A DNA stretch of 64,000 bases from Heliocidaris erythrogramma. Lineage: Eukaryota > Echinodermata > Echinoidea > Camarodonta > Echinometridae. The notes below the pieces were generated by a model. The model ran no database searches and was not told the origin of the DNA. It saw only the letters and a list, made by a program, of their open reading frames with translations. This document shows, piece by piece, positions 27,801 to 61,540 of the stretch (position 1 is the first letter of the stretch; every line of letters starts with the position of its first letter). The stretch spans positions 47,285,813 to 47,349,812 of the forward strand of contig CM046855.1 of the NCBI GenBank assembly GCA_025617745.1, read 5' to 3'. Both the position numbers and the translations under genes were made by a program.

Positions 27801-30800
27801 TGGCAACAATTTAATGTAGTAACGATACATGTCTTAGAGAGAATTTTCAGTTTTGAATTGCCTCTAATAATTCAAGGTTCCTACATGTTTCACAGGAATA
27901 ATGTGTTTAGGTCAAATTTAAGGAGAACAAAGTGTGAAATTTGATAGATTTTTAATGGAAATGAATAAGACTATATACAGAAAAACAATATTTGTAATGG
28001 TGATACATGAAGACATTTTCCCCATCTATGTCAGATTTCGTTTTAGACAGCCCCATGGACAAACCTACAGTTAGTACGAATAATGAAACCAGAAACTATA
28101 GCGTGGACCATGATCATGATTTGCGAAATTTCATGCAACAAAACCTTACAATTAAATTACATCACAGCATGAAATATTTGCAATATGAGAAATTTTATTG
28201 TAGTGCCAACAGTTGTCATTAAAAAGTTTCATGCAGCAAAGGTTTCTGGTTTTACAGATTATGATTTACATTGTATCTCCATTTCAGAGTGACACTCACC
28301 ATCAACTTTAAATAGATGATAACGTGTTATGCTTTCATGACTAATAGTCTTTAGCAAGACATACGTAGTTTCCATATAAACACTGCCAAATGTAGCATCA
28401 ATAACGGTGCAGGAAGGCTGATCTAAAGAAGGCAACAAAGAAATCAACCCATAGGAGTTCAGAGTTTTAAAGGTAGTGTTCAGAAGTGGGAAAGTGGGCG
28501 CTTTGAAGATTTAACTACTTTGGCAGCTGGAATGAAAAAATTACTACAAGTACTGATGTAAAATGATTAATTTCAATCATAGGTGACGTTTGTTTGAGAA
28601 AAATTGGTTCAGAAATAGCTAAAATATTAAAGAAATAAATATCAATTTTTGTACGTGGGCGTCATACTTTATTCACACACTAGTAAAACCAATGAGATTT
28701 CCGTTTACGCGACATGTGTACGAAACACTGTGCACCGCTGTGTGGGGAACGGTCAACGCGAGTGGCCCTGGCATAGCGCAGAAGGTAACGGTTGATATGT
28801 GATCATTTCAATTATTTTACTGAAAGTCACCGGAAATCATGAGTGGAATACTAGATGATCTCACGCATGTATCTTTTTTATGTAAGCCGGAAAATATGAG
28901 ACTAATATGTTTAATCAGCTTTATGCCAATTTTCTTTTTGCTACCACTATACTGCACAATACTTTTAAGTTTTCTTATGGTCAAAATTAATCAGTTTTCC
29001 CTCCTCAAATTGACAATTATTTTTATTTTCCACTCCTATATACTTTGAAAAAAATATTCATTACATGAACCAATGTGAATGAAAGCTGCCAAAATTTAAC
29101 AGAAAATTACCAATTTGTACAGGAAAATAGTGATTATATATTTTACACTGTGTTGCCAAATTAGAGACTTTAATGATTAGTTACAAGTGATTTGCTCTCA
29201 TTCGTGAATGGCACAACAGACAGCTTTGTAATCAAACAAAATATTTGATTTGATTTTGCTCATTCTGCTCATGTATAAAGTGTAATTCCTAGAATTCTGG
29301 ATCAATAGATAATGCAAAAACGTCACCAAAAGGCAAGACTCAAGCGAGATATGAAATTAAGTCTCCGACATTTTCACCGTGATTAATATAGTATCAAAAT
29401 GCAGTCATGTGCAATTGTTGAATTCACTTTACCACATACAGATCATACGGCATACATTGCACTGCACAAAACTGTTTTGTTGTCGTTGCTACTGTTGCTG
29501 TTACTGAAAATTAGTTTTAACACTGTTGTTTTTTATTCTACACTTATAATGCTCAGATAAACTACAGATGCCTGTATTAATTAAAATCGATGCAAACTGT
29601 ATGCAACTACAATACATATAATATGAATCTTGTTCTAAATCTAACACATAATACGATGCAAACACTGCAACATTCAGTTTACAGTTGTTTGTTGTTAAAT
29701 TGAATAATGGGGAGACAGACTAAAAGTCAGTCATTAGCCTTCATTTCATCAAACTATGGATAGCTGTCAAATTTAACTGAACTTCAAAATGATTGTTCTA
29801 CATCTACTGTAGATCACAGCATAAATGCAGTGCACTTAGCTCAAAACCCTGTGGAGAGGAAGTTGTTAGGAATAATAAAAATAGAATGTGCATTGGCAAG
29901 TGAACATATATACGACTGCTGCCTGTCATATTGACCATAACTCTTTAAGATAAAACGTTTGATCTACATCTACTGTAGATCGCAACATAAACATTTCACA
30001 AAACAAAGTTAGTTCAAATTTTGACTTTCTAAATAATTTTGCGGAAATAAATATCTATGTATTATTTTTTCTATTGCAAAGACCCTTTGTTCTGCATTTT
30101 AAGGGGTAGTAACAGTATTCATCAGAAATTGAAATCAACACACAATACTCTCTTCATAAAGTACATACTTAAAACCTGCCAGATAATCATGATAATTTAT
30201 TAATTTATTTTATACATAAAAGCTTGTATTCCTAATACTGTCATGAAAAATCATACCAATAAGTTAACTTATGGGAAAAATTCTGAATGTAACTTCATGT
30301 CTAGATACTAATTTAACATCTACTGTAGATACTGTTTCATCAAGTGTCTTGTCGTTGATTTTTACCAACAAATTTGCTCTCAGCCAAACAGATGCAAGGA
30401 TTTCAGTAGCTTATAACAGTTATTGCAACTTGTCATTGATGACAAGTTTTATGAAACAGGGCCCAGGTCCTACTTTATCACATTCATACCTGCTAAAAAA
30501 AAATTTTAAATACAAATTGTGCTTTTATCTTACCAATGTGATCACATGCACTCTTTCCACTGAAATCTACTAACTCGTTCAATTGTGTAGGAACACCTGT
30601 GGTAATAAAGAAAAATAAAGATACTACTGCCTATTCTAATATAGTCCCTTCTTGATTTACTAAACATGTAAGTATCAAAGAGAAATGAAGAATACTAAAT
30701 GTTATAAGCTTTAATTTTTTTTCCTGTTTTAGATCCATCACAATTCTTGGTTCGTTTATGAACAACTTGTTCGTGAACCAGAATAGCCTGGTGGTTAAGT

Positions 30801-33800
30801 CGCTGCCCGGCAAGCAGTAGATGACAGGTTCGAATCCCGCTGGTTCCAATTTTTTCTGACTTGTGTTTTTCATTACAGATCGAGCATACGATCTTTAACA
30901 CTGGGAGTAAAATGCCTAAAGATTTGTTTACAAATTAAAAATTCCTCCCCAGTCAAGCTTCTTTGTTTACTAACCATTGTCTACGGCGGACCGTTAAAAA
31001 TGAATATTAATGAGTCAGAAAGAAGAGGATCTTGGGTATTTGATTCTAGTTCATCGTGACTTGGCCGTGAACCAGAATAGCCTGGTGGTTAAGTCGCTGC
31101 CCGGCAAGCAGTAGATGACAGGTTCGAATCCCGCTGGTTCCAATTTTTCTGACTTGTGTTTTTCATTACAGATCGAGCATACGATCTTTAACACTGGGAG
31201 TAAAATGCCTAAAGATTTGTTTACAAATTAAAAATTCCTCCCCAGTCAAGCTTCTTCGTTTACTAACTTGTTCAAATATTTAAAAAATGATAAACATTAC
31301 ATGAATTGATCTATGTCAAGAAGGAATTTCCTTCCTGCAATACCGGTACTTTACTTAAAATAGTCACTCAAAGAGTCTAAAGTGTTTTGAATTGCTGCAA
31401 AATTCATACCATATCGAAGGGGAAGCCTTACTGATTAGGTATAACAACTTCCCAGGTCAAGATATGTTTTGGGACGGCAGTAATCATCTTTCAAAAATGG
31501 TATTTGTGAGATCCAGATTTTCTGCCTTCAGCAGTCCTCCGTCGAGTGTCGCGATGAGTGACGTCACAAGCTGGACAATAATGAGAGCTTTGCTGACTAG
31601 ATGCGCCGCATGCATTGAAAACACACGCAACTTACGCAATTTACTCATTGATTTTCGAGACTTGGAGATCAAAATGTCGGTTGTAGACGAGGAAATTGAC
31701 ATAGAAATTGGTGAAGAAAGTGATTAATTTTATACAATGTACACCTTATCTTGATACTTTATTTTTCTTCTGTCAATACTATACATAGCATAATTTTGTT
31801 CATGAAAACTATTTCAAGACTCAGAAAAAGGTTTGCGGTACAACCATGTGAGTTGGAATAACTCCACGTTCCGGTCAGAATGCTCTGGCCGTCGTCAGGA
31901 GAATGAGAAGAGCGAATAAATCAGCAGAATTTATATATGAAGCAGCAATTCACTTAATAAAAATGGATGCAAACAAATAACATAGAAAGAAATAGTAACA
32001 GTAACATCAAGGTACCTGCATTGAAAGGATAAGTGACATCAAACGAATCCTGCGTTGAAAAGAAACAATGAAAACAAGTGAACAATAGGACTAAGAAATC
32101 AATTAACCGTCTGGATAAGCTGGAAACAAAAGGGGGATTGGGACCGTAGGTAATCTGTGGAGAGAAACATGACATCCTGTTGAGGAAAGAAATTAAGGTT
32201 AAAACATACATATGGAAAAGGTGAAATATTGACTACAGAATGAGTATACTAATAATAAATGTTGTGAAAGGCTGTGGAGAGAAAAAACAATGATAATGAA
32301 CAAATTGAGGAGAGAAACATGAAATCATGGAGTTATTCCAACTCACATGGTTGTACCGCAAACCTTTTTCTGAATTACAAACTTCACCATGCAAACCTTC
32401 AAATCCTATATTATTTCAAGACTGTATTTACATGTATGTTTTGGTATATTATGCATGTTCTACTCTAAATCCTTTCATTTACATGAAGACATAATTATTA
32501 CAATGAATGTAATGTAAATGACACATTGATTTCCTAGTCAGGTTAAAGTGACTTGTTACTGTAATCTTACATTTTCAGTTATGCTTTTGTGAAGTGTTAT
32601 CGTCTGTGTCCTTTAAAAAAAATATTTTTGCTATTTTATTTTTGAAATTTTATTTTTTTATTTAGTTAGCTATTTATGTATTTATTATAGTTGTTATTAT
32701 TAAATGTAGGTATCTTAGAAATGTTTTTCATTGCTCATTTGTGTACATGATTTCAGAATTGACATGTACTGTACTCATGTATATAATCCGTGATCACTGA
32801 TCGCCAGTTGAGTTGTTGATTGCTATTAATAACCACAGCGCCATCTGCGTTGACTGAATGTATATGTCTGATTGACACTACCACCGCTACACTATAATAA
32901 AGCTTTATCAATCTGTACTACAAAGTTGCACCTGATTCTTCCTCTATTTCGTGGTGGCAGCGCTGGATTTCGACCCACAGCCTAAGTAATACTTGCTCCA
33001 TGCTGGGAGGAACTTTCTTGGCAAAGCCACATCCGGGTGCACCGTAAATGTAAGTTTTACCGTGGACTAGTAGTATCAGTGAACTTTAATTTAGTGTCCA
33101 GTCCCACAGCCTTACAATGGCGTGTGCTATGCCCAAAGTACCCAAGCAATGGTGCTTGGGCAAGGTGGAAACCATTACCTCATTTGAGAGTTGGAGACAG
33201 AATCTCCTGTATACCCTGAACTTAGACCCTCACTTTGCCCCCTTCTTGAATGAATCGGTTACATGGGGCAAGAAGACAAAAGCAAAGCCTACAAGGGGTT
33301 TTGTAGATGACTCTACCTCGACACCTTCAGAGTCGCGCAAAACTGCCCAACAAAAGGCTAACCTGTTAGATCTAATGCTCGGCCAGATAGCCAATTTCTG
33401 CCCTGTAATCGCTAGGAACTGCATTGTTCGCAATTCCACGTCATTGCATGACATCTGGGCGACAATAAGGCTTCACTATGGGTTCCAATCTACAGGTGCC
33501 CATTTCCTTGATTTTTGTGACATAAAATTGGAATCGGACGAGAGACCAGAGGATTTGTATCAGAAAATACTTGCCTTTGTCGAGGATAACTTGTTGACAT
33601 CTGGTGGGGGTATCACCCATCACGGTGATCCTATCCTTGAAGATGAAGAGCTTACACCGACAATCCAGAATTTCATTGTTTTGCAGTGGCTTCACTTGTT
33701 GCACCCAGACCTCCCCAAGGTAGTTAAGCAGAGGTATGGCACGGAGCTCCGGTCACGAACCCTTGCATCTCTCAAGCCCGAGATTTCCCAAGCCCTTACT

Positions 33801-36800
33801 AGCCTTTTAGAGTCGGTTGAGTGTTCTAGGGCCATGCGTACTGCTGCCTTTCCACCCCACAGTCGCAACCAGTCCGCTCCCCGGCGTGCGCAATTGCAGA
33901 CTCCAACTAGATTTCGTGCCAAGCCTGCCAAGTCTTGCCCCCTCTGTGTTCAGGCTGGTCGCCCAAGTGACCATTTCTTGAGTGTATGTCCCTACCTCCC
34001 TGAAACTGATAGGCGATACATGGCCAAAGCCCGGCAGGTTGCCAAGATATTTGACGGTGAGGGAGTCCCAGCAGTTGACTTTGAACCTCAGGAATTTCAT
34101 GTTGAGTCTGATTCTTTGGCTGCTCCAGACCAGGAGGAAACTTCCTCATTGCGTGTCCAGGTGCGTCAGTCTCCATATTTTGATGCATTTTATGACCATC
34201 ATGCCGTTCGTATTACACTTGACAGTGGTGCTACAGGTAATATGCTGCGTGCCTCTACGGCGCATGCCCTAGGTTGTAATGTCTCCCCCACCTCCCAGTC
34301 AGCCCACCAGGCTGATGGATCATCCCCCTTGCAGGTCACTGGTGAAACCCGTCTCTCTTTCTGCCGTGATAGCCATGTGTTTCATTTCGAAGGATTAGTC
34401 GTTGAGAATCTCGATGTTGACGTTCTTGCTGGCACTCCATTTATGGAGCGTAATGATGTGGCTATTCGCCCAGCCAAGCGGCAGATTACCCTAGCAGATG
34501 GCACTGTGTATGCATATGGTTCCAATGGTAAGCATACGGCTGGTCATGCAGTACGCCGTGCACATGTTCTTCGTGCCCCTCCTCAAACGACCACCCTCTG
34601 GCCAGGTGAGTTTCTTGAGCTTGCCCTCCCTCCAGAGTTCGCGGAGGATGAGACCCTGGTCTTGGAGCCTCGTACGGATTCCCCACCTACCCCCACACTG
34701 ACAGCATTTTTTCCAGCCCCCAGCATAGTCTCGTGCGTAGCGGGTAGGATCCGCATTCCCAATCTTTCTGAGGCTCCCTGCATTATTCGTCGCAATGAGC
34801 ATTTGTGTCAGGTTTGCCCCGTACTTATGCGGGATGACAATCAGGTCACCCCCGTCATCTCGGATCGGAATGCTGTACACTCTACGCCACTTGGAGGCAA
34901 AGGACTTCCCCGGTCTTCTGAGTCTGTGGTTGTGGATCCTGATAGTATCCTTCCCCCTAAGGCTAGGAGTGATTTTCAGTCCCTTCATGCTGAGTATGAT
35001 GGTGTGTTTAGTCCTTCATTCGAGGGCTATAATGGTGCTTCTGGTCCGTTCCAGGCTGTTGTGAACATGGGCCCGGTTCAACCACCACAGCGCAAGGGCC
35101 GTCTCCCCTTATATTCCCGTGATAAGCTTGTTGAGTTGCAGGGCAAATTCGATGATCTGGAAAAGCTTGGTGTTTTCGCACGCCCTGAGGATGTTGGCAT
35201 AACGGTTGAATATGTTAATCCGTCATTCCTTGTGAAGAAGCCCAATGGTGGTTCCCGGTTGGTAACAGCCTTTGCTGATGTTGGACGCTACTCCAAACCA
35301 CAGCCCTCAGTTCTCCCAGATGTTGATTCCACCTTGAGAAAAATAGGACAGTGGAGGTACATTATTGCTTCTGATCTTGCAAGTGCTTTTTACCAAATAC
35401 CTCTCTCACGTGAGTCAATGAAGTACTGTGGTGTTGCTACGCCTTTCCGAGGTATCAGAGTGTATACCCGTTGTGCCATGGGTATGCCGGGTTCTGAAAC
35501 TGCATTAGAGGAATTGATGTGTCGAGTACTTGGTGATTTGTTGTGTGAGGGGGTCGTTGTCAAGCTCGCAGATGACTTGTACTGTGGTGCCGACACCCCA
35601 CAGGCCCTTTTGCGGAATTGGTCCCGGGTGTTACAGGCTCTAGCCTCCAATGGACTTCACCTTTCTTCACCCAAGACTACCGTCTGTCCAAAGACCACCA
35701 CTATCTTAGGATGGATCTGGTCTGAGGGAACTCTCAAAGCAAGTCCACACAGAGTGACAACCCTGTCAACTTGCTCACCTCCCTCTACTGTGAAAGGCAT
35801 GAGGTCTTTCATTGGTGCCTACAAAATGCTTGCCCGTGTGCTCCCTAATTGTGCTTCCTACTTGGGCCCCCTTGATGACTCCATTGCTGGGATGAAATCC
35901 CAGGATCGCATTTACTGGACAGATGAGCTACACAATGCTTTCAACAAGGCTCAGTCTGTCATTCAGTCTTCTCAGACTGTCACTCTGCCACGTCCATCTG
36001 ACCAATTGTGGATCGTTACTGACGGGTCCGTTAAGAACTATGGTCTTGGTGCGACCCTGTATGTCACAAGAGACCAGAAACCCTTAGTTGCGGGATTCTT
36101 CAGCGCAAAGCTTCGTGGCCGACAGATTACCTGGCTCCCTTGTGAAGTAGAGGCACTATCCATTTCAGTCCATACATCATACAGTCATGTCACCCTGTCT
36201 GCATCCTTACTGACAGTAAACCGTGTGTCCAGGCCTATGAAAAGCTATGTCGTGGGGAATTTTCTGCCAGTCCGAGGGTCTCCACATTTCTCGCGACGGT
36301 GAGCCGGTACCAGGTTTCCCTACGTCATCTGGCAGGCTCAGCTAACGTACCTGCCGACTTTGCAAGCAGAAATGCTCCCCCATGTCATGATTCAAAATGC
36401 CAGGTATGTGCTTTCATCTCTCAAATGGAGGACTCCGTTGTCCATCTCGCTTCCATTGATGACATTCTCTCAGGGCAGACTCGGCTTCCATTCACGTCCC
36501 GCCATGCATGGGGAAAGATCCAGACTGAATGCCCAGCCCTTCGCCGCACACATGCTCATCTCGTGCAGGGTACCCGCCCATCTAAAAAGCTAACGGATAT
36601 TCGTGACGTGAAGCGATATCTCCAGGTTGCCACCATTGCTAATGATGGCTTACTAGTCGTACGCCGAGACCGTACATTCTTGCCGCAGCGGGAATGTATC
36701 ATTGTTCCCCGTGATGTGCTACAGGGAGTTCTTACTGCCCTTCATCTCCAGCTGAGCCACCCTACGCCACATCAACTCAAACAGGTAGTGTCTCGGTACT

Positions 36801-39800
36801 TCTATGCCTTGGACCTCGATGCAGCCATTCACCAGGTGACTGTTGGTTGCCACAGTTGTCTCTCCCTCCGGAATGTTCCTCACACTGCAACTCCTCAGTC
36901 TACGAGTGACCCCCCTAGTGTTGTAGGGGTATCCTTTGCCGCAGATGTCATCAAGCGTTCGCGCCAGCTCATTTTCGTCCTCAGAGAAACTGTCACTTCG
37001 TATACCGTGAGCACCTTGATATCAGATGAACGCAAAGAGACCCTCTGCAGTGCTCTCCTTCAGTTATGCACACCCTTACGGCCCCTTGACGGTCCCCTTG
37101 CTGTTGTGCGTACCGACCCTGCTCCAGGATTTGTGGCCCTCCAGCGCGATGAATCGCTCCGCAGGCAGGGTATTGCAGTCGAGCTTGGTCATGTCAAAAA
37201 CATCAACAAGAACCCTGTGGCTGAGAAAGCTGTGCGCGAGCTGGAAGATGAGCTTCTACGTGATGACCCCCATGGTGGCCCTGTTACCCCCCTTGCACTC
37301 GCTCTGGCCACTTCGCGCCTTAACAGTCGCCTCCGTGGTGTTGGACTTTCTGCTCGTGAACTGTGGACCCAACGTGATCAATTCACCAGTGAACAGATTC
37401 CTTTGCGCGACATGGACATCATTGCAACTCAACATGACAGACGTCTTTCTAATCATGGGCCAAGCTTACATTCCAAATCGCCCACACGCCCATCTTCCGA
37501 GGTTGAGTCTCACGTTCATGTTGGTGATCTTGTCTACCTGCGTTCTGATCGATCCAAGATCCAGGCCCGCCCTCGCTACCTTGTCTGTAGTGTGGAGGGT
37601 GAGTGGTGTAACATTCGCAAGTTCGTGGGCAGTCAACTCCGCTCCGCATCATACCGTGTCCGCCGTTCTGACTGCCTGAAAGTACCCCCTGAGGTTCCCT
37701 CCTCAAGCTCTTGGCAGCCCAGGGTCCCTGAGAGCGACGATGACCATGCTGACCATCTGCCCATCCCCATGCCAGCAGATGACACCCGGTATTCACAAGA
37801 TGCCTCTGATGACGCCAGTGTGCCCGAGGCCCCCATACCTCCTCCTGACCCCCCTGATATCCCGCACGAACTGTCTACCCCTCAGGATGGATCTTCCCCT
37901 ATTGGACTTGACCCGTCTGCTACACCAGTGACTCCTACTTCTCCTATGCTCCCACGTAGCAGCCGGTATCCCTCACGCCGTCGCTGTCCCCCATCATATT
38001 TTAAGGACTATGTACGTGATTAAATCTGCAGTGTTTTTGTGCTCCCACCCATGTTTTCCCCTCCTGCTCCGATAGTCGGTCGTTTTCAGTGGCCGTTAAT
38101 TTTTTTCACATGTGTTCCCCATATTTTTTTTAGTGGTTTGAGTTTTTCAGGTGAACTTTTATACTACATAAAGATGGGATGTAAGGTTTGTTAACAGCCT
38201 TTGAACAGGTTGAAATAGTAATCTGATCATGTTACATACTTGATTCAGTTTAAGCCTTAGTTAAAAAGGGCTATTTGAGTATTTAGAGTTCATGTGTTGA
38301 TATATACTCAACAACGGTTGAGTGTCCTAAGGTTCCTGCATTATACATTGTTTTTTTTGGTAAGACGTTCTTTGTTTAGATTCTAATGTTATTTGATAGT
38401 CAAGTGCTTTTGTTTATTTGCATATTTAAATGCCATATCAAAATTTTAAAGCTGCTGTGTTAGCTTACATGCACCGTGTATATCGTTATAATGTTTGTAG
38501 GAAGAAAGAAGGGATTACGCCAGTTGAGTTGTTGATTGCTATTAATAACCACAGCGCCATCTGCGTTGACTGTATGTATATGTCTGATTGACACTACCAC
38601 CGCTACACTATAATAAAGCTTTATCAATCTGTACTACAAAGTTGCACCTGATTCCTCCTGTATTTCTGATGGATATTTTTGTACAAACGTTCATATGTCA
38701 GTTAACTTGCTACTCTCATGAAGTAAATATTAGTAACTAGAGTTTACATCTTTCAGCATTTGAAATTTTACATCAAGTGCAATATTCCCAAAGGGTTTCA
38801 GAATATGCTCATTCATGGCAGGCAATATTTATTACGGTAGCGTAAGTGTTATAAGATATTGCTGTAAACGTTAAACCTGTACATGAAATTGAAAATATGA
38901 CAACTTTTTTAACAATCCCTGCGGCTGTCTAACAGTCTGAGTGGTCTGATTATTCTCTCCAAAAATATGAAAGCGAAGAAATCAGTCACACTCACAGTAG
39001 TAGGTCTAGTATTAGGCAACGAAACGCAACATCAGCTCCGGGCGCTCCCCGGGCATACAGGCCCTGAACTCAACTGCACAAGCTGCCAAAGCCGATAAAG
39101 CTGAAGTTGTCAAACTCGCGAAATTGGTTTATAGCCGATTATTGCTTCATAAAAGTTGCAATAATCATGCAGATATATTCTATAACATTTCAAGATGACA
39201 CACTCCTGAATGATATGTCGAATGATATCGAATAATTAACTGAAAGAGCGACAATAAATAGCACAAGAAAACAAACGTACTGTAGTGTAGACTGAAGACT
39301 GTAGTAAACAAACCAGAGTACAGCTTTCGCGCGCAACCCATAGATCATAGCTGCCAAGGGTGTGACGTCACAATTTAGACCTCGCTACGGCCGGTGTTTG
39401 GCTTGGTTTGGGGGTCTGAGAAGGGTCTCTTGAAATTACATTTTAAGCCTTTCCAGGATACTTATATGACTTTTCAGCTCATCATTTGTGTTTTTCAAGT
39501 TGTAATTTTTCCATCCATATATAATTTGTCACTAATTTTCAGTTGTTGTGATTTTTCTTCGAGTGACTACTTTAACCAAACCTGTTTCACCCCCCACCCT
39601 CTCTCTCGATCTCCCGCTCTGTCTCTTTTACTCTCTTTTTCTCATTTGCATCTCCCTCTACAGAAAACTCACCAAATTCCAAATTTGATGTGTAAAGCTT
39701 CTTGCCATCTTGCCCAACAGATAAGAAGCGTGGTCCTTGTCTACCATGCGAAGGCACTACAAGATGGTGAATACACTGCTCAAGTTCTATGCGACGATAT

Positions 39801-42800: not shown

Positions 42801-45800
42801 TTATAGTCTCAGCTATAACATACTGAAATCTGGAAGAAAATGGACCAAAAACAACTGAGATACAGCTCAGAGAACAATGTCATGTAGATTCATGATTCGA
42901 AAAAAAAATCATCTTCCATAGACATAACACGCAAATAGGGAAAATTCTGACATGGCATCTTTAATTGAAAATTTCACTGTGATGACGTCATCAAAATGAA
43001 AAATGGTGGAAACTGATTTTGTAGGAAACTGCCTCAGCTACAACATATTAAAATCTGGGCGAAAAACAACGAATAATTACGAATCTATAGTCAAATGTGC
43101 ATAAATGTGATGACGTCAAAACATGAAAAATGGAAATTTAGACTTCTGGCGCCATTTTGATGACGTCATAATGTTTATAAGGGTCAAATGATACATGAAA
43201 TGAAATCTATGATTCATACCCTACCTGATGATGACAAAATTTTTTAGGGTCAATGGACTATCTAACGAGCTATAGTGAATTTTTTATAGGCATGTTTTTG
43301 CATGTTTTTACGTTATTTTCGCCATAGACGCGCGCACGGATTTTGAGTTTGACGCGCCCGTACGACCTTATTATTGATTGAAAATGATTCCAAATTGATG
43401 GAAATGATGAAGAAAAGTGTTAGGATTGCAAATCAATCGAAAAAACAGCGTTTTAACGTTATTTACGACTTGCGCGCGCGTTAAACGTGCGCACGGACGC
43501 TTACGCACGTTTGAAAATGCTCAAAATGACCTGAAACGTGTGCAGACTTGATCCTACGTGATTTTAGGCATTTTAAAATTTTGAAGCGCGCGTACGCGCA
43601 CGTTCTGACCTCTAGATGACCTGTGAGGACACGACTTGATGACCCGTCAAGTGAAGTTTATGTGATGTGAATATAGTTGATTTTTGATGATCGATTATGA
43701 AGATATAATAGATCTTGAAAATTTACAAAATGGCGTCTTGATGACGTCACGATGACCTGATGACCTCCAAAAGCTTAATGGATCATGTTCATGATTGACC
43801 TCATACATGACATGAAACTCGATGATATTGACCTGGCCGATTTTGAGATTTGGTGGCCACAAAATTTTGTAATAAAAATAAATAAATAAAGAAGAAAATT
43901 CTGACAAAATTAAAAGGAAGTCTGTCATAAATGACAGACCACCTAATAAAACCCCCTCACGCGGAACCCAACTCGGGATTGGGTTCTGCGCGGACCATTA
44001 TTCTATGCGAGCGTTAAAGGGTGCGTCAACTAATCTCCTCACAAGTCGTTGTTTTGTTTCTTGGTGTATTTCAACTTGCAATATCTCTACATTGAATTAA
44101 TATTGGAAGCTCATATTTCAAATTTAGCATAGCGACATGGAACCCCTATATACAGAGCAAAATATTTGTTGGTGATTGATACACTTAAGCTGTCATGCAA
44201 AACTTTTGAGATCATGGAAGGAATTCATAAAAACCATTAAGTGCTTTTTCTTCTTCTGGGCTTCTGCTTTCATCTTTACATACCTCATGTAGAATAATAC
44301 CTCACAGAAAATTTAGTATCAAAATGATCTTTTGACATAAAATTGCTCCTCAATAAAATAATATTTTATGCGCAAAGTAAGTTTTAACTGAATGAAAGTA
44401 CTTTTACTTATAAATGTTGGAAGCAGAAAAATGCAATTTCTTTACGTCCAGAGCGTGGGGGGACGTAGGTCGAATGGCATCACCACAATTATTTTTGCAT
44501 TATGCTAGGTACCCATTCCAAACATGGTTGGAGAGAAGCAATGCCTTGCTTAAAGATGCAAATGCTCTGCCAGAGACTGAACTCTGACCTTTGAACCCCT
44601 GATCTCTCATTTAGAGTCTAAACCACTCAAATACAACATCTCTATGCATGGGGGTCTTTGTCACTCAAAGCTTGTTTCTCCTTTTTTCTCCATTATCCTA
44701 CATTACCATTCATTTATTCTGAAAATGGCCTTTTTTTAATTGTTGTTGCAGGTTTTTTTTAATTAAAAGTGGTTTACTCTATCATGTTTAAATGAGGCTT
44801 TGTCATACTTGCCTAGACACGGAAACAGCCTTGACGATCCCTACAGTTTCCACACCAACATGAATAATTAGGTACTTTTCATTTGTAGGAAGAGGAACCA
44901 GCCACACAGCTCTGCACAATCCCACATGACAGTTTGGATCCATGTCTATGAGTGCACCCTCGAAAACATAATCAGTCCATGTGTGATAGGAGAGACTCTG
45001 ATCCTGATAGGCACCATAAGCTACAGTGATTCTTGGGTAGGATCCAACTGAGAGTAAAGCTTCTATCATACTTGAGCTGGGTATTCCATTGCAATCAACT
45101 TGTACTCGTACAAAATATGGGTACATATATGGTTGCACCTGCATAAAGTATTAAAATAATGAATTTCTTTTTCCATAGTGTTATATGTTAAACATCATCT
45201 TAGATTTCAATTATTCAGTAACTTCTGGTGTTTAACGTGAAATGCAGGAAAAGAATTTTGCACCCGCGATTGAATGTTCATTTATTAAATTGCAGGTAAG
45301 ATGCATGCAAAAATTCACAGATCAGTCTAAACTGTAAAAAAAAGTTTTTTTAAATCCCCTCATCTGAATACTGTCCAAAGAGTCTGTATAAAGTAATAGA
45401 ATGTCCAAATATGGGCCCATGTTTATTTCAGATTTGGAAGGAATACTGGCCAGTGATGCTGAAGTTTTCTTCAGTTCAATATACCTTATTTCTTCTTTGT
45501 TTTAACTCATCACGAACTAGATTATTAATTCGTAATTAAATATCATAATTGATAGGATTGAAGTAAATTGAATATATCATAAAGAAATGTGAGAAAATTA
45601 CAATGCCCCGACCGGGATTTGAACCCGGAACCCTGGATTACATGACCAGTGCTCTACCAACTGAGCTATCCGGGCTCCCGTCGAAGCAAAGTAACAATCT
45701 CACATATAGCCCCTCTCTTTCCATCGAGCGTAGGGGGTACATCCATACCAATTCCATGCGTACGCTATATAATGGCCTACCAATGAGACAGGTCTTCCCT

Positions 45801-48666: not shown

Positions 48667-50700
48667 ATGTGTAGGAGTGAGGCAAGCAGAGAAAATAAAG
48701 AGATATATTTAATGGGTGATTATAATATAAATTTATTGAATTATGATAATGACGCCAATGTAAAAGATTTTGTTGATTTTATGTACTCATTTGGATTATT
48801 TTCTCTTATAACAAAACCAACACGTGTCACTGAAAACAGTGCAACATTAATTGATACTATTTTTACCCACTGTATTCAAAATGAATTTAGTTCTGGTATA
48901 ATTAAGGATATAGTTCCGATTGCAGTGTCGAAAGGAAGGCGCCGTTCCCAGTGGATAACACGGGATATTATCATCATGTCAAGAAAAAAGAAACGTGCTT
49001 TCAGAAAGGTTATTAAGAGTAAATCTTCTAATGAATCTGATTTAACAAATAACAGGAACAAGTATCTTTGGTCTAAATATCAAGCAATATCTCGGGAAGT
49101 GAAACGTATGACTAAACAGTCTTACAATGATTATATTCATAGCCTGGCAATGAATGCTAATAATGACCCTAAACGTTTCTGGTCCTTTGTTAAAGCAAAA
49201 CGGAATAATTCGTGTATTAAGAACTTTGAACATAACGGTATATATGAAGCTCCTTCTGACATAGCGTTTGCTTTCAATGAATTCTTTTGTAATAACTTTT
49301 CTGACAATGGAATTTCTGCTATTAATATTCATAGTTTGCTAGACAAATGTAGACATGTTGGTATACTTCCATTGTCACAAATAAGTGTTGATACTTCGGA
49401 TGTTGTTAAAGCAATTGATATGCTCAAGTTTTCTAAACCTCCAGGTCCAGATGGTATATCTCCAGCATTCTTGAAACTTGCTAATAAGTCAATATCCCCT
49501 ATTTTGTCTCGAATCTTTAATCTAAGTTTGCAGTCTGGTATAGTCCCTCGAGATTGGAAAGTTGCGAACGTTATTCCGTTGCATAAAAACGGTAAACGGT
49601 CATTAATTGAAAATTACCGTCCAATTTCGCTTACTTCTGTCCCCTGCAAAATGCTGGAAAAGATTGTAGTTGGCAAACTCATTGATTTCTCCTTAGATCA
49701 TAAGATTATTCTAGACAACCAGCATGGTTTTCTTCCCAAACGTTCTTGTGTCACTCAAGCTTCCGTTCTGTTCCATAAATGGGCTCAGATCTTAGACCGC
49801 CCATCTCCTCCTAGAATTGATGCCATCTTTCTCGATTGGTCTAAAGCTTTCGATAAGGTTAACCATTCTGTACTACTTCGAAAGTTGCATAGTTTCGGAA
49901 TTTGTGGTAATATTCTTAAATGGATTAATTCTTTCGTAAGTGGCCGTGCCCAGCGTGTTTTGTTTGAAGGGAGCGAGTCTGACTGGAGGCCCGTAACCTC
50001 AGGTGTTCCTCAAGGGAGCGTAATAGGGCCTATACTTTTTGATCTGTTTACCGCTGATTTACCAAATTTGATTTCTGCTGGTACAGGTTTGCCCCAATAT
50101 GCAGACGATACTGTACTCTATCGGACAATATCCAATCACAGCGACACCCTTGTGCTCCAGTCAGATCTCGACTCTATCATTTGCTGGTGCAATGATAATT
50201 GTATGGAACTTAACTCTATGAAATGTAAAATAATGCACATTACAAGATCTCGAAAACCAATCTTAGTTTCATATTATGTAAATGATAATATACTTGAAGA
50301 AGTGGACTCGTACAGGTATCTCGGCCTTGTTTTCTCAAATGATCTGTCATGGTCTAAACATGTTCATCATATTGTATCGAAATGCTCAAAACTTTCCGGA
50401 TTTATCCGTAGAATAGTTAATTCAAGAAACCCAGTAGTTCTAAAACGATTATTCTGCTCACTCTGCAGACCAGTTTTAGAATATGGAATACCCGTTTGGC
50501 TTCCTCACCAGAAAAATCACATTCAGTCCCTGGAATCCATTCAAAAACGTTTCACACGTTTTTGTTTTCCATACGACCAAGCGAATGCTCTTACTTACCT
50601 TGAAAGATTACAAAAACTTGATCTTGCTCCACTTTACAACAGACTTGTTTTTCTATCTACGAGCTTCGTCATAAAAATAATGTCTTTTCCGGCTGTATGA
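48667..50700 (+). pseudogene. Chimeric open frame: LINE-B endonuclease end fused in frame to LINE-A reverse transcriptase
   Basis: The 677-codon frame looks like one endonuclease/RT protein but changes element at about 48911. Residues up to SGIIKDI belong to LINE-B, whose next residues (SDHMPIF) are found 4 kb away at 52882. Residues after that belong to the 5'-truncated LINE-A. The endonuclease lacks its N-terminal half and its SDH end, so it cannot be active. Its first few codons (before about 48693) are from LINE-C. Confidence 0.75.
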
Positions 50701-51095
50701 TGTACCTGCCCACTTCTTGCCAAGACCAAGAATTCGAAAAACTGAACATCTCCTTTTCGTTCATGAGTTTGCTAGATGTAACGCCCTGAAGTTTTCATGT
50801 TTCCATACGTTTCCAAGATTGTGGGAATCTATCCCCTCGGAAGACAGAGATTTATGTCTGTACACATCAGTAAAGCCAATCCTCAATGCTCTAAGGAACC
50901 ATTTATTCAGTCTTCCTCCTATTGATAATGCAATATAATCTATACATCTATAAAGTGTAACAAAATGTTACTTGTCTTCCATTCTTCTCGTCTACTCCTC
51001 TAATCTGTTCTATGACTTATTCCTCTTCTCTCTATTTTCTTCCTTCACCCTACACTTCATTCTATTACTCTTGCGCGCTCTCTTTCCCTTTTTCT

Positions 51096-51135
<40 letters not shown>

Positions 51136-51462
51136 CCTCTCTTACTTGCTCTCGCTCTCTCTCTCTTTTCCCTCCCTCTCTCTCTCCACTTGTCTCTCCA
51201 ACAAGTAACTTTTATCACTTTACATGTTCTTCTCAAATGTCTTAATCTGATTAATTTAATTTCATATATTCTCTTTTATTATAAGTACTCAGGGGTTTTT
51301 TCCTGACTCCATTGCTCTCCCTTGCTTGCCTCTTCTTCTTTCTAGCTTTCTTCTTTCTTTTCTTTTCCTCATGTATCACTCTGTTTCATTTTTATGTTTA
51401 TTGTTAGAGTGATCTATAAGAAGATTGTGTGTTTTTATGTACGTGTTTCTATGTTTGTAAAC
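50196..51462 (+). repeat. Tandem duplication in LINE-A, copy 1 (1267 bp)
   Basis: Runs from TAATTGTATGGAACTTAACT to ATGTTTGTAAAC. It includes the last 166 codons of RT and the 3' region with a CT-rich microsatellite (about 51100-51190). Copy 2 follows directly. Confidence 0.9.
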
Positions 51463-52713
51463 TAATTGTATGGAACTTAACTCTATAAAATATAAAATAA
51501 TGCACATTACAAGATCTCGAAAACCAATCTTAGTTTCATATTATGTAAATGATAATATACTTGAAGAAGTGGACTCGTACAGGTATCTCGGCCTTGTTTT
51601 CTCAAATGATCTGTCATGGTCTAAACATGTTCATCATATTGTATCGAAATGCTCAAAACTTTCCGGATTTATCCGTAGAATAGTTAATTCAAGAAACCCA
51701 GTAGTTCTAAAACGATTATTCTGCTCACTCTGCAGACCAGTTTTAGAATATGGAATACCCGTTTGGCTTCCTCACCAGAAAAATCACATTCAGTCCCTGG
51801 AATCCATTCAAAAACGTTTCACACGTTTTTGTTTTCCATACGACCAAGCGAATGCTCTTACTTACCTTGAAAGATTACAAAAACTTGATCTTGCTCCACT
51901 TTACAACAGACTTGTTTTTCTATCTACGAGCTTCGTCATAAAAATAATGTCTTTTCCGGCTGTATGATGTACCTGCCCACTTCTTGCCAAGACCAAGAAT
52001 TCGAAAAACTGAACATCTCCTTTTCGTTCATGAGTTTGCTAGATGTAACGCCCTGAAGTTTTCATGTTTCCATACGTTTCCAAGATTGTGGGAATCTATC
52101 CCCTCGGAAGACAGAGATCTATGTCTGGACACATCAGTAAAGCCAATCCTCAATGCTCTAAGGAACCATTTATTCAGTCTTCCTCCTATTGATAATGCAA
52201 TATAATCTATACATCTATAAAGTGTAACAAAATGTTACTTGTCTTCCATTCTTCTCGTCTACTCCTCTAATCTGTTCTATGACTTATTCCTCTTCTCTCT
52301 ATTTTCTTCCTTCACCCTACACTTCATTCTATCACTCTTGCGCGCTCTCTTTCCCTTTTTCTTTCTCTCCTCTCTCTCTCCCTCCCTCTCTTACTTGCTC
52401 TCGCTCTCTCTCTCTTTTCCCTCCCTCTCTCTCTCCACTTGTCTTTCCAACAAGTAACTTTTATCACTTTACATGTTCTTCTCAAATGTCTTAATCTGAT
52501 TAATTTAATTTCATATATTCTCTTTTATTATAAGTACTCAGGGTTTTTTTCCTGACTCCATTGCTCTCCCTTGCTTGCCTCTTCTTCTTTCTAGCTTTCT
52601 TCTTTCTTTTCTTTTCCTCATGTATCACTCTGTTTCATTTTTATGTTTATTGTTAGAGTGATCTATAAGAAGATTGTGTGTTTTTATGTACGTGTTTCTA
52701 TGTTTGTAAACTA
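51463..52713 (+). repeat. Tandem duplication in LINE-A, copy 2 (about 1250 bp)
   Basis: Matches copy 1 with about seven substitutions and an 18-bp shorter CT run, so the duplication is young. It contains a second copy of the RT C-terminus (51470-51967, open) with no RT core. After it, unique LINE-A 3' sequence continues (CCGACTAGTGTGGGAG) to the tail. Confidence 0.9.
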
Positions 52714-56510: not shown

Positions 56511-57361
56511 TGGCCTTTAGCTTTACAGTATACTCCGTGTCGTTATAATGTTGAGTCTCATACTCCCTCATACCAATAATCTTTAAGGATTTGGCACTTC
56601 CTGCGCTTGAAAGCAAATTAAATTCTCAATTGGTTCGATAACGACAAATTAAAAAAAACGTAGCAAATTAAATGAGCAAGATGTAATGTTCATGTCTTAT
56701 GGTTTACTCATTAAACGAAGGAAAAACAGAGAAGTAGCCTCAAAAGAGAAAGATAATCACAAAAATGCATCAGATTTTCCCTTTTTGAACAGTGAAATTC
56801 ATGTATTGAATTGAATGTATTATATTTTTGTTGGTTGTTGTTGTTCAAAATCCTCGGCGTGACAACAACGCCCCCCCCCCCCCCCCGTCCTCCCATGCTA
56901 TCAGCGATCCCCAAATGGTCAAGATGCCTTGAGCCTTAACCGTGTTCAATAGTGGATTATTTGATCAAAAGTGTATTATTTTATACACGCTGTTCCAGTA
57001 TGTGGAAATTTTGAATTTCATGCTTTTCAATGATATAGGTGACATTTTTCGGAGCTGGAGGCAAGAGGGGCATAATGACTACCCCCCCCCCCTGAAGGAT
57101 TTCTCATTCTGCTCGCTTGCCATTATTGTGCCCATAATTTACACCAAGTAAGAGCGATATTTCTGAAAATTTCCCGAAAATTCGCTTGCTACCCTCGCTA
57201 TAGCTCCCAATAACAGGTTATGAAATCAAGCATATCTCATAGAGTATGTTGATATCGATGTAATCCTAAAAAAAAGGAGTGAAGTAAAAGATCATTCGAC
57301 ATTCCCCCAAATTAATTTGCTGTAGTCATTTTCATTATATGGCTGTAAATAATGCAAAAAC
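56511..57361. other. Intergenic DNA
   Basis: No gene supported. Contains two poly-C runs (56870-56886 and 57083-57091). The last six bases, AAAAAC, are repeated at 60834-60839 and are the probable target duplication of the fold-back element. Confidence 0.5.
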
Positions 57362-57499
57362 TACGGAAGCGTTAAAGTGCCATTCGACTTGACGACTTGT
57401 CGAGATATTTTATCTCGACAAGTCGACTTAATATCCATATTTTGTCGACTTGTAAAGATATTTATCTAACCATGTCGACTTAATAACTTTCATAAGTCG

Positions 57500-58116
57500 A
57501 CATGGCGATATAAATTATCTTGCCAAGTCAACTTCCCAAAAATTATAAGTCGACATGGCGACATAAATTATCTTACCAAGTCGACTTAACAAAAATACCT
57601 GTCGTCATGGCGAGATATATTATCTTGCCAAGTCGACTTCCCAAATATAATAAGTCAACATGGCGACATGAATTATCTTACCAAGTCGACTTAACAAAAA
57701 AATTATGTCGTCATGGCGAGATATGTTATCTTGCCAAGTCGACTTCCCAAAAATTATAAGTCGACATGGCGACATAAATTATCTTACCAAGTCGACTTAA
57801 CAAATATACATGTCGTAATGGCGAGATATATTATCTTGCCAAGTCGACTTCCCAAAAATTATAAGTCAACATGGCAACATAAATTATCTTAGCAAGTCGA
57901 CTTAACAAAAAAATTATGTCGTCATGGCGAGATATATTATCTTGCCAAGTCGACTTCCCAAAAATTGTAAGTCAACATGGCGACATAAATTATCTTACCA
58001 AGTCGACTTAACAAAAATACATGTCGTCATGGCGAGATATATTATCTTGCCAAGTCGACTTCCCAAAAATTATAAGTCAACATGGCAACATAAATTATCT
58101 TAGCAAGTCGACTTAA
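57500..58116 (+). repeat. Left-arm tandem array, 105-bp units
   Basis: The ACTTCCCAAA mark recurs at 57531, 57636, 57742, 57847, 57953 and 58058, giving a period of 105-106 bp. Each unit carries two AAGTCGACTT palindromes about 50 bp apart (some with one change) separated by ATGGCGACATAAATTATCTT and ATGGCGAGATATATTATCTT. The open frames in this array are by-products of the repeat. Confidence 0.85.
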
Positions 58117-59018
58117 AGGAGAATCAACCCTTAATTACAAATTTACTTATTTTGGAAGGTGTAATATATTCCTACTTATTGGCCTAAATCATTTTCTAAT
58201 AAGATATCAGAAAAAGGGAAAAATAAAGATATTCCAACAGCCGGTATCGTCTCCTACTCATTTCCATGGGGGCTGCCATTTTCTTGCTGATTTGGAGTTG
58301 TACATGAACCATTGAGAAATGTTCCAGTCAAGAAGATATATTGAATCCAATACCTAAATTGCTTTTCTTCATTAACTAAAATCCCATATGTGACGAAAAA
58401 TATAAAGTGGGTGTTTACATGTATTATAAAAATTAAATCTTTATCATGATATTTTTAAATTGTCTGGTTTTGCTTAACAAAAATCTATTTTCTTGGGTTT
58501 GCCAAACAGAGCAGAACATAATATATGCAACATGCATTCTGACTTTTCAAATCCATTATCCGAAAGCAGGTGAATGCATAGCTTGCCGCTATAGATGCTC
58601 AGGGATGAAACATCCATAAATTTGAATTAATTTGCTCCGTCCCATACGTCACAGTATCGAGAAAATAGATTTCTATTAAGCGAATATCGATTTTCAACAG
58701 AAATATATAAAGAAATCTTCAGTTTAAAAATAAATTGACATATCTATTCAATATGTTTAATCTAAAACTGGTTTTTAATTTTGAAAAAGGCAATTGGGCA
58801 TTTGGATTAAGAAAATCTTCATGTACACATAAAAAAAATGGCAGCCTCCATGTACTGCTAGCAGACGATACATATTGGGAGCAGATGATAAATTTTGCTC
58901 AGAAAATCTTGATTCGTATCGATCTCGTATATTTTGACGCGAAGCCATATAGTCCAACAAGTAGGAATAAATAACACCTTTGAACAATATCGTCTGTATT
59001 TTTGAGCGTAATTCTCCT
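58117..59018. mobile_element. TTAA-flanked non-autonomous element (902 bp) in the fold-back arm
   Basis: Ends AGGAGAAT and ATTCTCCT, flanked by TTAA on both sides (58113-58116 and 59019-59022); the empty site GACTTAACAAAA is seen in sister units of the array. Inner inverted blocks (GGCTGCCATTTT near 58270, AAAATGGCAGCC near 58837) extend the symmetry. A TTAA target points to piggyBac or Kolobok. No transposase. Confidence 0.75.
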
Positions 59019-59201
59019 TTAACAAAAAAAATATATCGTCATGGCGAGATATATTATCTTGCCAAGTCGACTTCCCAAAAATTGTAAGTCAACATGGCGA
59101 CATAAATTATCTTAATGTGTAAACAAATCTTTCGGCATATTACTCCCAGTTTTAAAGATCGTATGCTCGATCTGTAATGAAAAACACAAGTCAGAAAAAA
59201 T

Positions 59202-59275
59202 TGGAACCAGCGGGATTCGAACCTGTCATCTACTGCTTGCCGGGCAGCGACTTAACCACCAGGCTATTCTGGTTC
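59202..59275 (-). repeat. tRNA-like head, minus copy
   Basis: Same 74-nt head as at 30775-30848, on the minus strand, with A and B boxes intact and a poorly paired T arm. Confidence 0.7.
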
Positions 59276-59526
59276 ACGGCCAAGTCACGACGAACTAGAA
59301 TCAAATACCCAAGATCCTCTTCTTTCTGACTCATTAATATTCAAACGGTCCGCCGTAGACAATGGTTAGTAAATATGCCGAAAGATTTGTTTACAAATTA
59401 AAAATTCCTCCCCAGTCAAGCTCCTTCGTTTACTAACCATTGTCTACGGCGGACCGTTTGAATATTAATGAGTCAGAAAGAAGAGGATCTTGGGTATTTG
59501 ATTCTAGTTCGTCGTGACTTGGCCGT

Positions 59527-59600
59527 GAACCAGAATAGCCTGGTGGTTAAGTCGCTGCCCGGCAAGCAGTAGATGACAGGTTCGAATCCCGCTGGTTCCA
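59527..59600 (+). repeat. tRNA-like head, plus copy
   Basis: Same head sequence, first of two direct copies in the loop, followed by the TTTTTTCTGACTTGTGTTTT tail. Confidence 0.7.
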
Positions 59601-59826
59601 ATTTTTTCTGACTTGTGTTTTTCATTACAGATCGAGCATACGATCTTTAAAACTGGGAGTAATATGCCGAAAGATTTGTTTACAAATTAAAAATTCCTCC
59701 CCAGTCAAGCTCCTTCGTTTACTAACCATTGTCTACGGCGGACCGTTTGAATATTAATGAGTCAAAAAGAAGAGGATCTTGGGTATTTGATTCTAGTTCG
59801 TCGTGACTTGGCCGTGACTTGGCCGT

Positions 59827-59900
59827 GAACCAGAATAGCCTGGTGGTTAAGTCGCTGCCCGGCAAGCAGTAGATGACAGGTTCGAATCCCGCTGGTTCCA
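59827..59900 (+). repeat. tRNA-like head, plus copy
   Basis: Second direct copy, 300 bp after the first. The preceding linker has a short local duplication (GTGACTTGGCC twice). Confidence 0.7.
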
Positions 59901-59989
59901 ATTTTTTCTGACTTGTGTTTTTCATTACAGATCGAGCATACGATCTTTAAAACTGGGAGTAATATGCCGAAAGATTTGTTTACAAATTA

Positions 59990-60833
59990 AGATAATTTAT
60001 GTCGCCATGTTGACTTACAATTTTTGGGAAGTCGACTTGGCAAGATAATATATCTCGCCATGACGACATAATTTTTTTGTTAAGTCGACTTGCTAAGATA
60101 ATTTATGTTGCCATGTTGACTTATAATTTTTGGGAAGTCGACTTGGCAAGATAATATATCTCGCCATGACGACATGTATTTTTGTTAAGTCGACTTGGTA
60201 AGATAATTTATGTCGCCATGTTGACTTACAATTTTTGGGAAGTCGACTTGGCAAGATAATATATCTCGCCATGACGACATAATTTTTTTGTTAAGTCGAC
60301 TTGCTAAGATAATTTATGTTGCCATGTTGACTTATAATTTTTGGGAAGTCGACTTGGCAAGATAATATATCTCGCCATGACGACATGTATTTTTGTTAAG
60401 TCGACTTGGTAAGATAATTTATGTCGCCATGTCGACTTATAATTTTTGGGAAGTCGACTTGGCAAGATAATATATCTCGCCATGACGACATGTATATTTG
60501 TTAAGTCGACTTGGTAAGATAATTTATGTCGCCATGTTGACTTATTATATTTGGGAAGTCGACTTGGCAAGATAATATATCTCGCCATGACGACATGTAT
60601 TTTTGTTAAGTCGACTTGGTAAGATAATTTATGTCGCCATGTCGACTTATAATTTTTGGGAAGTTGACTTGGCAAGATAATTTATATCGCCATGTCGACT
60701 TATGAAAGTTATTAAGTCGACATGGTTCGATAAATATCTTTACAAGTCGACAAAATATGGATATTAAGTCGACTTGTCGAGATAAAATATCTCGACAAGT
60801 CGTCAAGTCGAATGGCACTTTAACGCTTCCGTA
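59990..60833 (-). repeat. Right-arm tandem array, 105-bp units
   Basis: Reverse complement of the left arm. Read outward from the loop, units marked by GTAAGTC/ATAAGTC, by GGCAAC against GGCGAC and by TTAGCAAG against TTACCAAG follow the same order as in the left arm. Confidence 0.85.
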
Positions 60834-61540
60834 AAAAACAAAAGACTTCAGCGTTAGAAAAGAGAATGGAAATGTTTGCTTGCTCACTTCGCTCGCTCAC
60901 ACATGGATCATTAGACCATCTCATACACAACTGCTAAGTAGGGAAGAAACAGTGTCCAGATCGAACCACAATAAGAAAGAAGATGCGTGGTAATGTAAGG
61001 TAATACCAATGTCACAAAATTGTCTTTTTCGCTTTATGTTCACACCTTGTAGGTGCCTCTTTCCCCCGTAAGTTCCCTTTTTATGGTGCCCCCTCCCCCC
61101 TCTTTGAAAGACGCTCCGCCGCCCCTGTGGCAAGCGGCATCGCATCATATAGTACCGTACAGTACCGAGTTTTTCCTTCTTGTGATGCTAGACCGATCCC
61201 CATCGTGCGATTCCAATGCTGGTCGAGCTAAATGAACGTTGATAATATAAAGTACAAAAATAAAGTTAGATCTACAAAAAATGTATATTTAAAAAAAAAG
61301 TAAATTAATAAAATTAAAAGGATAGAATTTTGTATGCAAATTTATTTCCTTTTCATTGTTTTCCTTATTAATTACCATGCATGTAGACTATGTACCGGTA
61401 ATATAATTGAATGAACGAGGCTATTGTGTTTCCGTTTCTAGCAATTTCTTAGATTTGTGAGTCAGAGACGACGGAAAACTACACGGTTTGTTCACAGTTT
61501 GAAGATATTTTCGAGGAAAATCCTAATCTTTCCGTAGAAA
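60834..61540. other. Spacer and AHSA1 promoter/5' UTR region
   Basis: No coding exon. The AHSA1 transcription start must lie here or further left; no TATA box or clear heat-shock element (nGAAnnTTCn) was identified just before the start codon. Confidence 0.45.

What the first reader, a model, noticed from the sequence alone, without database searches (positions are those of the whole stretch)
57362..60833. Fold-back element whose 105-bp units keep the same variant order in both arms
The two arms are about 843 bp each, with six-base flanking duplication AAAAAC. Units differ by small marks (GGCAAC or GGCGAC, TAGCAAG or TACCAAG, ATAAG or GTAAG), and the same succession appears in both arms from the loop outward. 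Independent expansion of each array would not give this. One arm must have been copied as a whole from the other, by inverted duplication or gene conversion. The unit itself is built from AAGTCGACTT palindromes every 50 bp or so, so each single strand can fold at several scales. I know no named family with these termini.
Basis: seen in the sequence. Interest (0 to 1): 0.75.

Follow-up and report, generated by a model that had tools for sequence, protein, structure and literature searches.

The report
Foldback transposon with copied repeat arms
A stretch of animal DNA here looks like a non-coding jumping gene whose two mirror-image arms carry largely the same run of slightly different repeats, most likely because one arm was copied from the other, and its ends point to a known transposon group called IS3EU.

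Summary
The palindrome is real. Its ends are 57362 and 60833, with a 6-bp AAAAAC duplication on either side. The left arm is split by a 902-bp TTAA-flanked insert (58117-59018, Kolobok-like ends). With the insert set aside, the arms are 847 and 846 bp and 98.6% alike (12 differing columns). Pairing then continues into a tRNA-like repeat at the centre (59115-59987).

Shared unit order holds for the CCC half-units: only 4 of 720 orders do as well, all ties. It is not shown for the AAC half-units: 144 of 720 do as well, and half-units 5 and 7 disagree. So the arms share an ancestral arrangement, and at least one local change followed.

The termini are not nameless. TACGG..CCGTA with a 6-bp duplication fits the published IS3EU signature (TAYGG..CCRTA, 6-bp TSD; PMC12730594). 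Best reading: a non-autonomous IS3EU-type element in foldback form, its arms made by inverted duplication, as described for some Galileo copies.

Not shown: the transposase, other copies and long-read support. No collection of animal genomes could be searched. New variant of a known kind.

The parts
57356..57361 (.). left copy of target site duplication AAAAAC
60834..60839 (.). right copy of target site duplication AAAAAC
57362..57429 (+). left terminal domain, TACGGAAGCG..., with a 15-bp-stem hairpin that resembles an array half-unit
   Evidence: identical over 68 bp to the right terminal domain
57430..57534 (+). left subterminal domain, ending in a diverged half-unit
57535..58116 (+). left array, half-units 2-12 (CCC and AAC types alternating, 52-53 bp)
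58117..59018 (.). 902-bp nested insert in the left arm only; TTAA at 58113-58116 and 59019-59022, ends AGGAGAAT..ATTCTCCT; Kolobok-like by TTAA and 5'-RR..YY-3' ends
   Evidence: leaving one TTAA restores register with the right arm
59023..59114 (+). left array continued beyond the insert, half-units 13-14 (part)
59115..59373 (-). tRNA-like repeat S1, inverted; continues the left arm
59374..59428 (+). 55-bp unpaired centre, from the tail part of another S unit
59429..59690 (+). tRNA-like repeat S2; one difference from S1 in the aligned part
59718..59987 (+). tRNA-like repeat S3, joined to the right array at the same point as S1 to the left array; private 11-bp duplication
59988..60660 (-). right array, half-units 14 to 2
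60661..60765 (-). right subterminal domain
60766..60833 (-). right terminal domain, ...CGCTTCCGTA

Best explanation
This is a non-autonomous DNA transposon of foldback form, most probably of the IS3EU superfamily, in an animal genome. Shown: matching ends TACGG..CCGTA, a 6-bp duplication, no recognisable transposase, internally repetitive arms, and a palindrome that runs through the array into a tRNA-like repeat at the centre. Inferred: an IS3EU-type DDE transposase supplied elsewhere recognises the ends, and perhaps the repeated AAGTCGACTT sites, and moves the element. The array grew from a subterminal half-unit by unequal exchange in 105- and 211-bp steps. An inverted duplication (snap-back copying or template switch) whose turn lies in the tRNA-like repeat made one arm a copy of the other. 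Later, one arm changed locally (half-units 5-7), and a TTAA element landed in the left arm.
For: Ends and duplication match 'generate 6 bp TSDs ... end with TAYGG..CCRTA' (PMC12730594 passage) and 'TA..TA termini. [quoted passage not shown] TAYGG starts at 83 of 64000 plus-strand positions. Arms 98.6% alike over 847 columns and CCC half-unit order shared, 4 of 720. The array/S junction lies at the same point in both arms. The terminal domain aligns with the AAC half-unit at score 46 against at most 19 in 300 shuffles. The 211-bp period is present in both arms. Some Galileo copies lengthen their terminal repeats by duplicating and inverting inner sequence (PMC3573991 passages). The longest ORFs in the element, six of at least 75 aa, gave no Pfam match above a curated cutoff and none to a transposase.
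Against: One copy only; neither a transposase source nor a second copy could be looked for. The AAC half-unit order is not shared beyond chance (144 of 720). [quoted passage not shown] The duplication lies in an A-rich flank. The timing and number of copying events are not resolved: the longest identical run of 307 has P 0.055, and the centre is not significantly cleaner than the array (P 0.12 for at most one difference in 259).
Confidence: 0.68

Rival explanations
1. A Mutator-superfamily foldback, like Tetris or Tm1, with a shortened or misread duplication.
For: [quoted passage not shown] the terminal, array and middle domains resemble Tetris; MuDR and IS256 are quoted with duplications of 4-10 bp (PMC10045372 passage).
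Against: Tetris has 8-10 bp and Tm1 9 bp duplications. Here the match is 6 bp, and moving the boundary by up to 3 bases gives at most 4. The ends fit TAYGG..CCRTA of IS3EU.
Confidence: 0.15
2. The arms are old and are kept alike by repeated gene conversion through hairpin or cruciform intermediates, not made by one inverted duplication. This is about how the arms arose and can hold whichever superfamily is right.
For: 9 of the 12 differing columns lie in half-units 3-7, with a 307-column identical run further in; half-units 5 and 7 differ in type as a patchy or shifted conversion could make them.
Against: The run is not significant (P 0.055), and the centre is not significantly cleaner than the array (P 0.12). 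One event plus later change is simpler.
Confidence: 0.3
3. Each array expanded independently from the same starting unit.
For: AAC half-unit order is not shared beyond chance (144 of 720); Galileo F copies can have different repeat numbers in their two ends (PMC3573991 passage).
Against: CCC half-unit order shared (4 of 720, all ties); both classes together 40 of 20000; reversed order is worse in both classes (19 against 1, 25 against 11). Same number of half-units, and the same array/S junction in both arms.
Confidence: 0.04
4. An assembly or library artefact, for example a missed hairpin adaptor, made the second arm.
For: No reads were available; palindromes are a known assembly hazard (recalled).
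Against: The arms differ at 12 columns, a 902-bp insert with its own TTAA duplication sits in one arm only, and a 6-bp duplication lies exactly at the palindrome ends between different flanks.
Confidence: 0.03

Closest known systems
IS3EU superfamily (PMC10045372, PMC12730594; passages)
   Same: TA..TA termini, in rust-fungus families TAYGG..CCRTA; 6-bp duplications; non-autonomous families exist (45 families in Repbase, 17 autonomous).
   Different: No transposase here; arms of about 850 bp made of tandem palindromic units. The passages shown give terminal repeats only as longer than 30 bp for the fungal families and do not mention foldback form.
Tetris foldback, Drosophila virilis (PMC4079207; abstract, section 10, part 1 of section 16)
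   Same: Long terminal repeats with a flanking domain, a tandem-repeat domain and a variable middle; repeats share a 37-bp stretch with the flanking domain; no conserved ORFs.
   Different: 8-10 bp duplications, Mutator suggested; about 220-bp units. Sequences not compared.
Galileo, P superfamily (PMC3573991 passages; PMC3688188 abstract)
   Same: Long, internally repetitive ends (about 0.3-1.2 kb); in some copies inner sequence duplicated and inverted into the ends; repeats in the ends contain further transposase-domain binding sites.
   Different: 7-bp duplications, P-type transposase. Sequences not compared.
Tm1 Mutator/foldback of root-knot nematodes (PMC3169594; passages)
   Same: Composite terminal repeats with tandem motifs; one copy with a nested element.
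   Different: About 14-bp motif, 9-bp duplications, asymmetric 7-bp terminal motifs.
Oyster satellite repeats CgiSat35 and CgiSat47, annotated DNA/IS3EU (PMC8268682; passages and table)
   Same: Tandem repeats annotated as IS3EU-related.
   Different: Units of 690 and 129 bp; sequences not compared; foldback form not stated in the passages seen.
TU elements of sea urchin (recalled; named only in passing in PMC4079207)
   Same: Recalled: foldback-type animal elements with subrepeats in long inverted ends.
   Different: Recalled: 8-bp duplication and about 15-bp subrepeats. Sequences not compared.

Membership tests
IS3EU superfamily | Termini TA..TA, in the form TAYGG..CCRTA | tested here: met
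   TACGG..CCGTA; signature from passages
IS3EU superfamily | 6-bp target site duplication | tested here: met
   AAAAAC on both sides, one copy only
IS3EU superfamily | IS3EU-type DDE transposase, in the element or in an autonomous relative with the same ends | not testable with these tools
   No transposase match in the element's six longest ORFs, as expected of a non-autonomous copy; the host genome is not held and no animal collection is offered
Foldback-type elements (a form, not a lineage) | Long inverted terminal repeats built of tandem subrepeats around a middle part | tested here: met
Foldback-type elements (a form, not a lineage) | Dispersed copies with varying arm length | not testable with these tools
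   One copy in the window; host genome not held
Mutator foldbacks (Tetris, Tm1) | 8-10 bp target site duplication | tested here: not met
   6 bp; no boundary shift of up to 3 bases improves it
Galileo / P superfamily foldbacks | 7-bp target site duplication | tested here: not met
   6 bp; the 7-bp length is from a passage
Kolobok (nested insert only) | TTAA duplication and 5'-RR..YY-3' ends | tested here: met
   TTAA on both sides, AG..CT ends; the piggyBac ends CC..GG are not met
Kolobok (nested insert only) | Kolobok transposase in an autonomous relative | not testable with these tools
   Three insert ORFs of 76-87 aa gave no match above a cutoff; host genome not held
tRNA-derived SINE (repeat S only) | tRNA-related head with A and B boxes; target site duplication | tested here: inconclusive
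   For: box-like motifs seen by eye (consensus recalled); 9-bp AACTTGTTC on both sides of the copy at 30773-31264 (flank 7-mers match in 31 of 243049 pairs). Against: Rfam tRNA-Sec 19.4 bits, below the cutoff of 47; not called by ARAGORN; RNA fold z -0.51, 58 of 200 shuffles as good

The most novel reading that the evidence does not exclude
An IS3EU-type element has taken the foldback form and lengthens its arms by inverted duplication that also carried a tRNA-like repeat into both arms. Foldback form would then be a state that a further transposase lineage, besides Mutator and P, can reach, with the repeated palindromic sites possibly serving the transposase.
Probability: 0.5. Interest if true: 0.5.

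Novelty: new variant of a known kind. Interest (0 to 1): 0.4.

Why it matters
Foldback elements are mostly placed in Mutator, with Galileo in the P superfamily (PMC4079207, PMC3573991). A clear IS3EU case would suggest that the form arises by a common copying process whatever the transposase. The marked units, the one-sided insert and the shared junction make part of the order of events readable in one copy. With more copies, a single inverted duplication could be told from continuing gene conversion.

Tried and rejected
Other copies. The host genome is not held. Exact patterns from the array and ends and from the tRNA-like repeat gave no match in viral contigs; five of eight scans used, and a viral collection says little about an animal repeat. 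One scan of genome contigs with the 20-base end gave one match, L001, in an Omnitrophota bin. Beyond those 20 bases blastn found only matches with E 1.9 or more, no inverted or direct repeat was found in L001:3200-4200, and 0.93 chance matches are expected, so I take it as chance. Metagenome scans were capped at 0.

Literature. Array and end motifs as words gave 73 papers; none of the 20 listed titles names a transposon, and the other 53 were not seen. Searches (25 of 473 listed; 25 of 2874 listed, the titles all on sea urchin biology) did not test for foldback. One search shows one paper in the library with both 'IS3EU' and 'foldback': PMC8268682, where 'foldback' stands only in a reference title. 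One search shows none with 'IS3EU' and 'fold-back'. Papers outside that library, and Repbase itself, were not searched, so absence from print is not shown.

Rejected. miRNA families over the centre (MIR447, 86.3 bits against a cutoff of 200, and others) are below their cutoffs and reflect a long hairpin. A significantly cleaner centre: one search prints 100% (rounded) for S1/S2 and one search printed P 0.025 for zero differences, but the alignment shows one difference, and P for at most one is 0.12. Recent gene conversion as shown: the run test gives P 0.055. Weak Pfam matches of a repeat ORF at 60307-60681 (DUF2863 22.6 bits against 25, a zinc ribbon 22 against 26, and two more) are below cutoffs and lie in the tandem array.

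Errors corrected. One search aligned only the first part of the left arm. Searches joined the two parts but kept two extra bases at the TTAA; one search uses the one-TTAA join.

Full report
Setting. The window looks like animal DNA: 37.4% G+C, reverse-transcriptase ORFs, and an exon matching the CatSper gamma C-terminal domain at 17291-17635 on the minus strand (Pfam E 1.8e-22; solved CatSper gamma 2 chains, E 5.3e-17 and 6.3e-17). The species was not identified, and no whole genome is held for it.

Anatomy. The element runs from 57362 to 60833, with AAAAAC on each side. In the flanks, 6-mers match by chance in 119 of 245025 pairs. Moving the boundary by up to 3 bases gives a longest match of 4, against 6 at the stated boundary. 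The first 68 bp are identical at both ends and fold into a hairpin with a 15-bp stem. A 105-bp subterminal domain follows, then the array of alternating CCC and AAC half-units of 52-53 bp. Tandem Repeats Finder reports periods of 53, 105 and 211 bp in both arms, with more matches at 211 (95% left, 97% right) than at 105 (90% and 94%). AAGTCGACTT occurs 26 times in the window, all in the element, against 0.04 expected.

Nested insert. The left arm breaks at 58116 and resumes at 59023. Between lie 902 bp with TTAA on either side and inverted ends AGGAGAAT..ATTCTCCT; a second stretch of similarity lies about 30-70 bp in from each end. With a single TTAA kept, the left arm is 847 bp against 846 bp for the right, half-unit for half-unit. 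TTAA plus 5'-RR..YY-3' ends is the description of Kolobok in PMC9587614 (passages). The insert is in one arm only, so it probably arrived after the arms were paired.

Centre. Pairing does not stop at the array. At the same point in both arms the array joins a tRNA-like repeat: S1, inverted, on the left and S3 on the right, with a further copy S2 between. S1 and S2 differ at one place in the aligned part; S3 has one substitution and an 11-bp tandem duplication of its own. The unpaired turn is 55 bp and belongs to the tail of another S unit. By eye the turn can be read as a 2-bp overlap of the two joined sequences, which is weak evidence on mechanism. A head-to-tail dimer of the same repeat stands alone at 30773-31264 with AACTTGTTC on both sides, so S is, or was, mobile on its own. 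Its relation to tRNA is weak: 19.4 bits against a cutoff of 47, not called by ARAGORN, and no better folding than shuffles (z -0.51).

Test of the order claim. I aligned 26 half-units (13 per arm) and compared matched with permuted positions for 12 per arm; the partial half-unit 14 was left out, as were the diverged half-units 0 and 1. CCC class: distance 1, and 4 of 720 orders as good, which are the ties among identical units. AAC class: distance 11, and 144 of 720 as good. Both together: 40 of 20000 within-class shuffles as good, the best at 8 against the observed 12. Order read in reverse is worse in both classes, 19 and 25. The disagreement is at half-units 5 and 7: L5 is 6 steps from R5 but 1 from R9 and R13; L7 is 2 from R7 but 1 from R5. 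One gain and one loss of a 105-bp unit in one arm would produce this, as would one shifted conversion (inference). The arms therefore descend from one arrangement, but not every mark is shared. Of the 12 differing columns, 9 lie in half-units 3-7. The longest identical run is 307 (P 0.055 if placed at random), so recent conversion is not shown.

Growth of the array. The terminal domain aligns with the AAC half-unit at score 46, where 300 shuffles reach at most 19; with the CCC half-unit the score is 30 against 21. The subterminal domain aligns with the CCC half-unit at 66, shuffles at most 27. The array thus probably arose from the element's own end, as proposed for Tetris, where repeats and flanking domain share a 37-bp stretch (PMC4079207 section 16). 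The first 755 nt of the left arm fold far better than shuffles (z -19.5, 20 shuffles), and one 105-nt unit as RNA has z -8.1 (200 shuffles). That such hairpins promoted slippage and template switching is inferred.

What it is. PMC12730594 states for IS3EU elements of rust fungi that they generate 6-bp TSDs and end with TAYGG..CCRTA (passage). [quoted passage not shown] Both fit here. The six ORFs of at least 75 aa that lie in or overlap the element gave no Pfam match above a curated cutoff and none to a transposase, so the assignment rests on ends and duplication in one copy. Tetris (8-10 bp), Tm1 (9 bp) and Galileo (7 bp) differ in duplication length. Galileo offers a precedent for the copying step: copies with inner sequence duplicated and inverted so that the ends lengthened, and copies with internal tandem repeats whose numbers differ between ends (PMC3573991 passages). 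In Galileo the repeats hold additional transposase-domain binding sites (PMC3688188 abstract). That the AAGTCGACTT units do the same here is an untested analogy.

Prior description. In the held library one paper contains both 'IS3EU' and 'foldback', the latter only in a reference title, and none 'IS3EU' and 'fold-back'. Repbase and subscription papers were not searched.

Artefact check. Twelve differing columns, a one-sided insert with its own duplication, and a 6-bp duplication at the palindrome ends argue against a library or assembly fold-back. Reads were not available.

Verdict. The ends have a probable name, and the whole is a new variant of a known kind. Interest 0.4. The boldest open reading is a further transposase lineage in foldback form, carrying a captured tRNA-like repeat in both arms.

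Noticed in passing
window 30773-31264: Head-to-tail dimer of the roughly 300-bp tRNA-like repeat found in the element's centre, with AACTTGTTC on both sides (30764-30772, 31265-31273); possibly a dimeric SINE-like element.
   Followed up: partly
window 58117-59018: 902-bp TTAA-flanked Kolobok-like non-autonomous element nested in the left arm.
   Followed up: partly
window 32802-38666: LTR-retrotransposon-like unit: 149-bp direct repeats 98% identical around ORFs with reverse transcriptase and RNase H above Pfam cutoffs, and protease and integrase zinc-binding matches just below them.
   Followed up: no
window 50196-52713: About 1.27-kb tandem duplication, 98% identical, covering the 3' part of a reverse-transcriptase ORF.
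   Followed up: no
window 17291-17635 (-): Exon encoding a CatSper gamma C-terminal domain, the clearest host gene among the ORFs scanned.
   Followed up: partly
window 45604-45675 (-): tRNA-Thr(TGT) by ARAGORN and Rfam, 59 bits; gene or tRNA-derived repeat not decided.
   Followed up: no
window 22973-23542: Long biased tandem repeat giving overlapping Glu/His-rich and Lys-rich ORFs.
   Followed up: no
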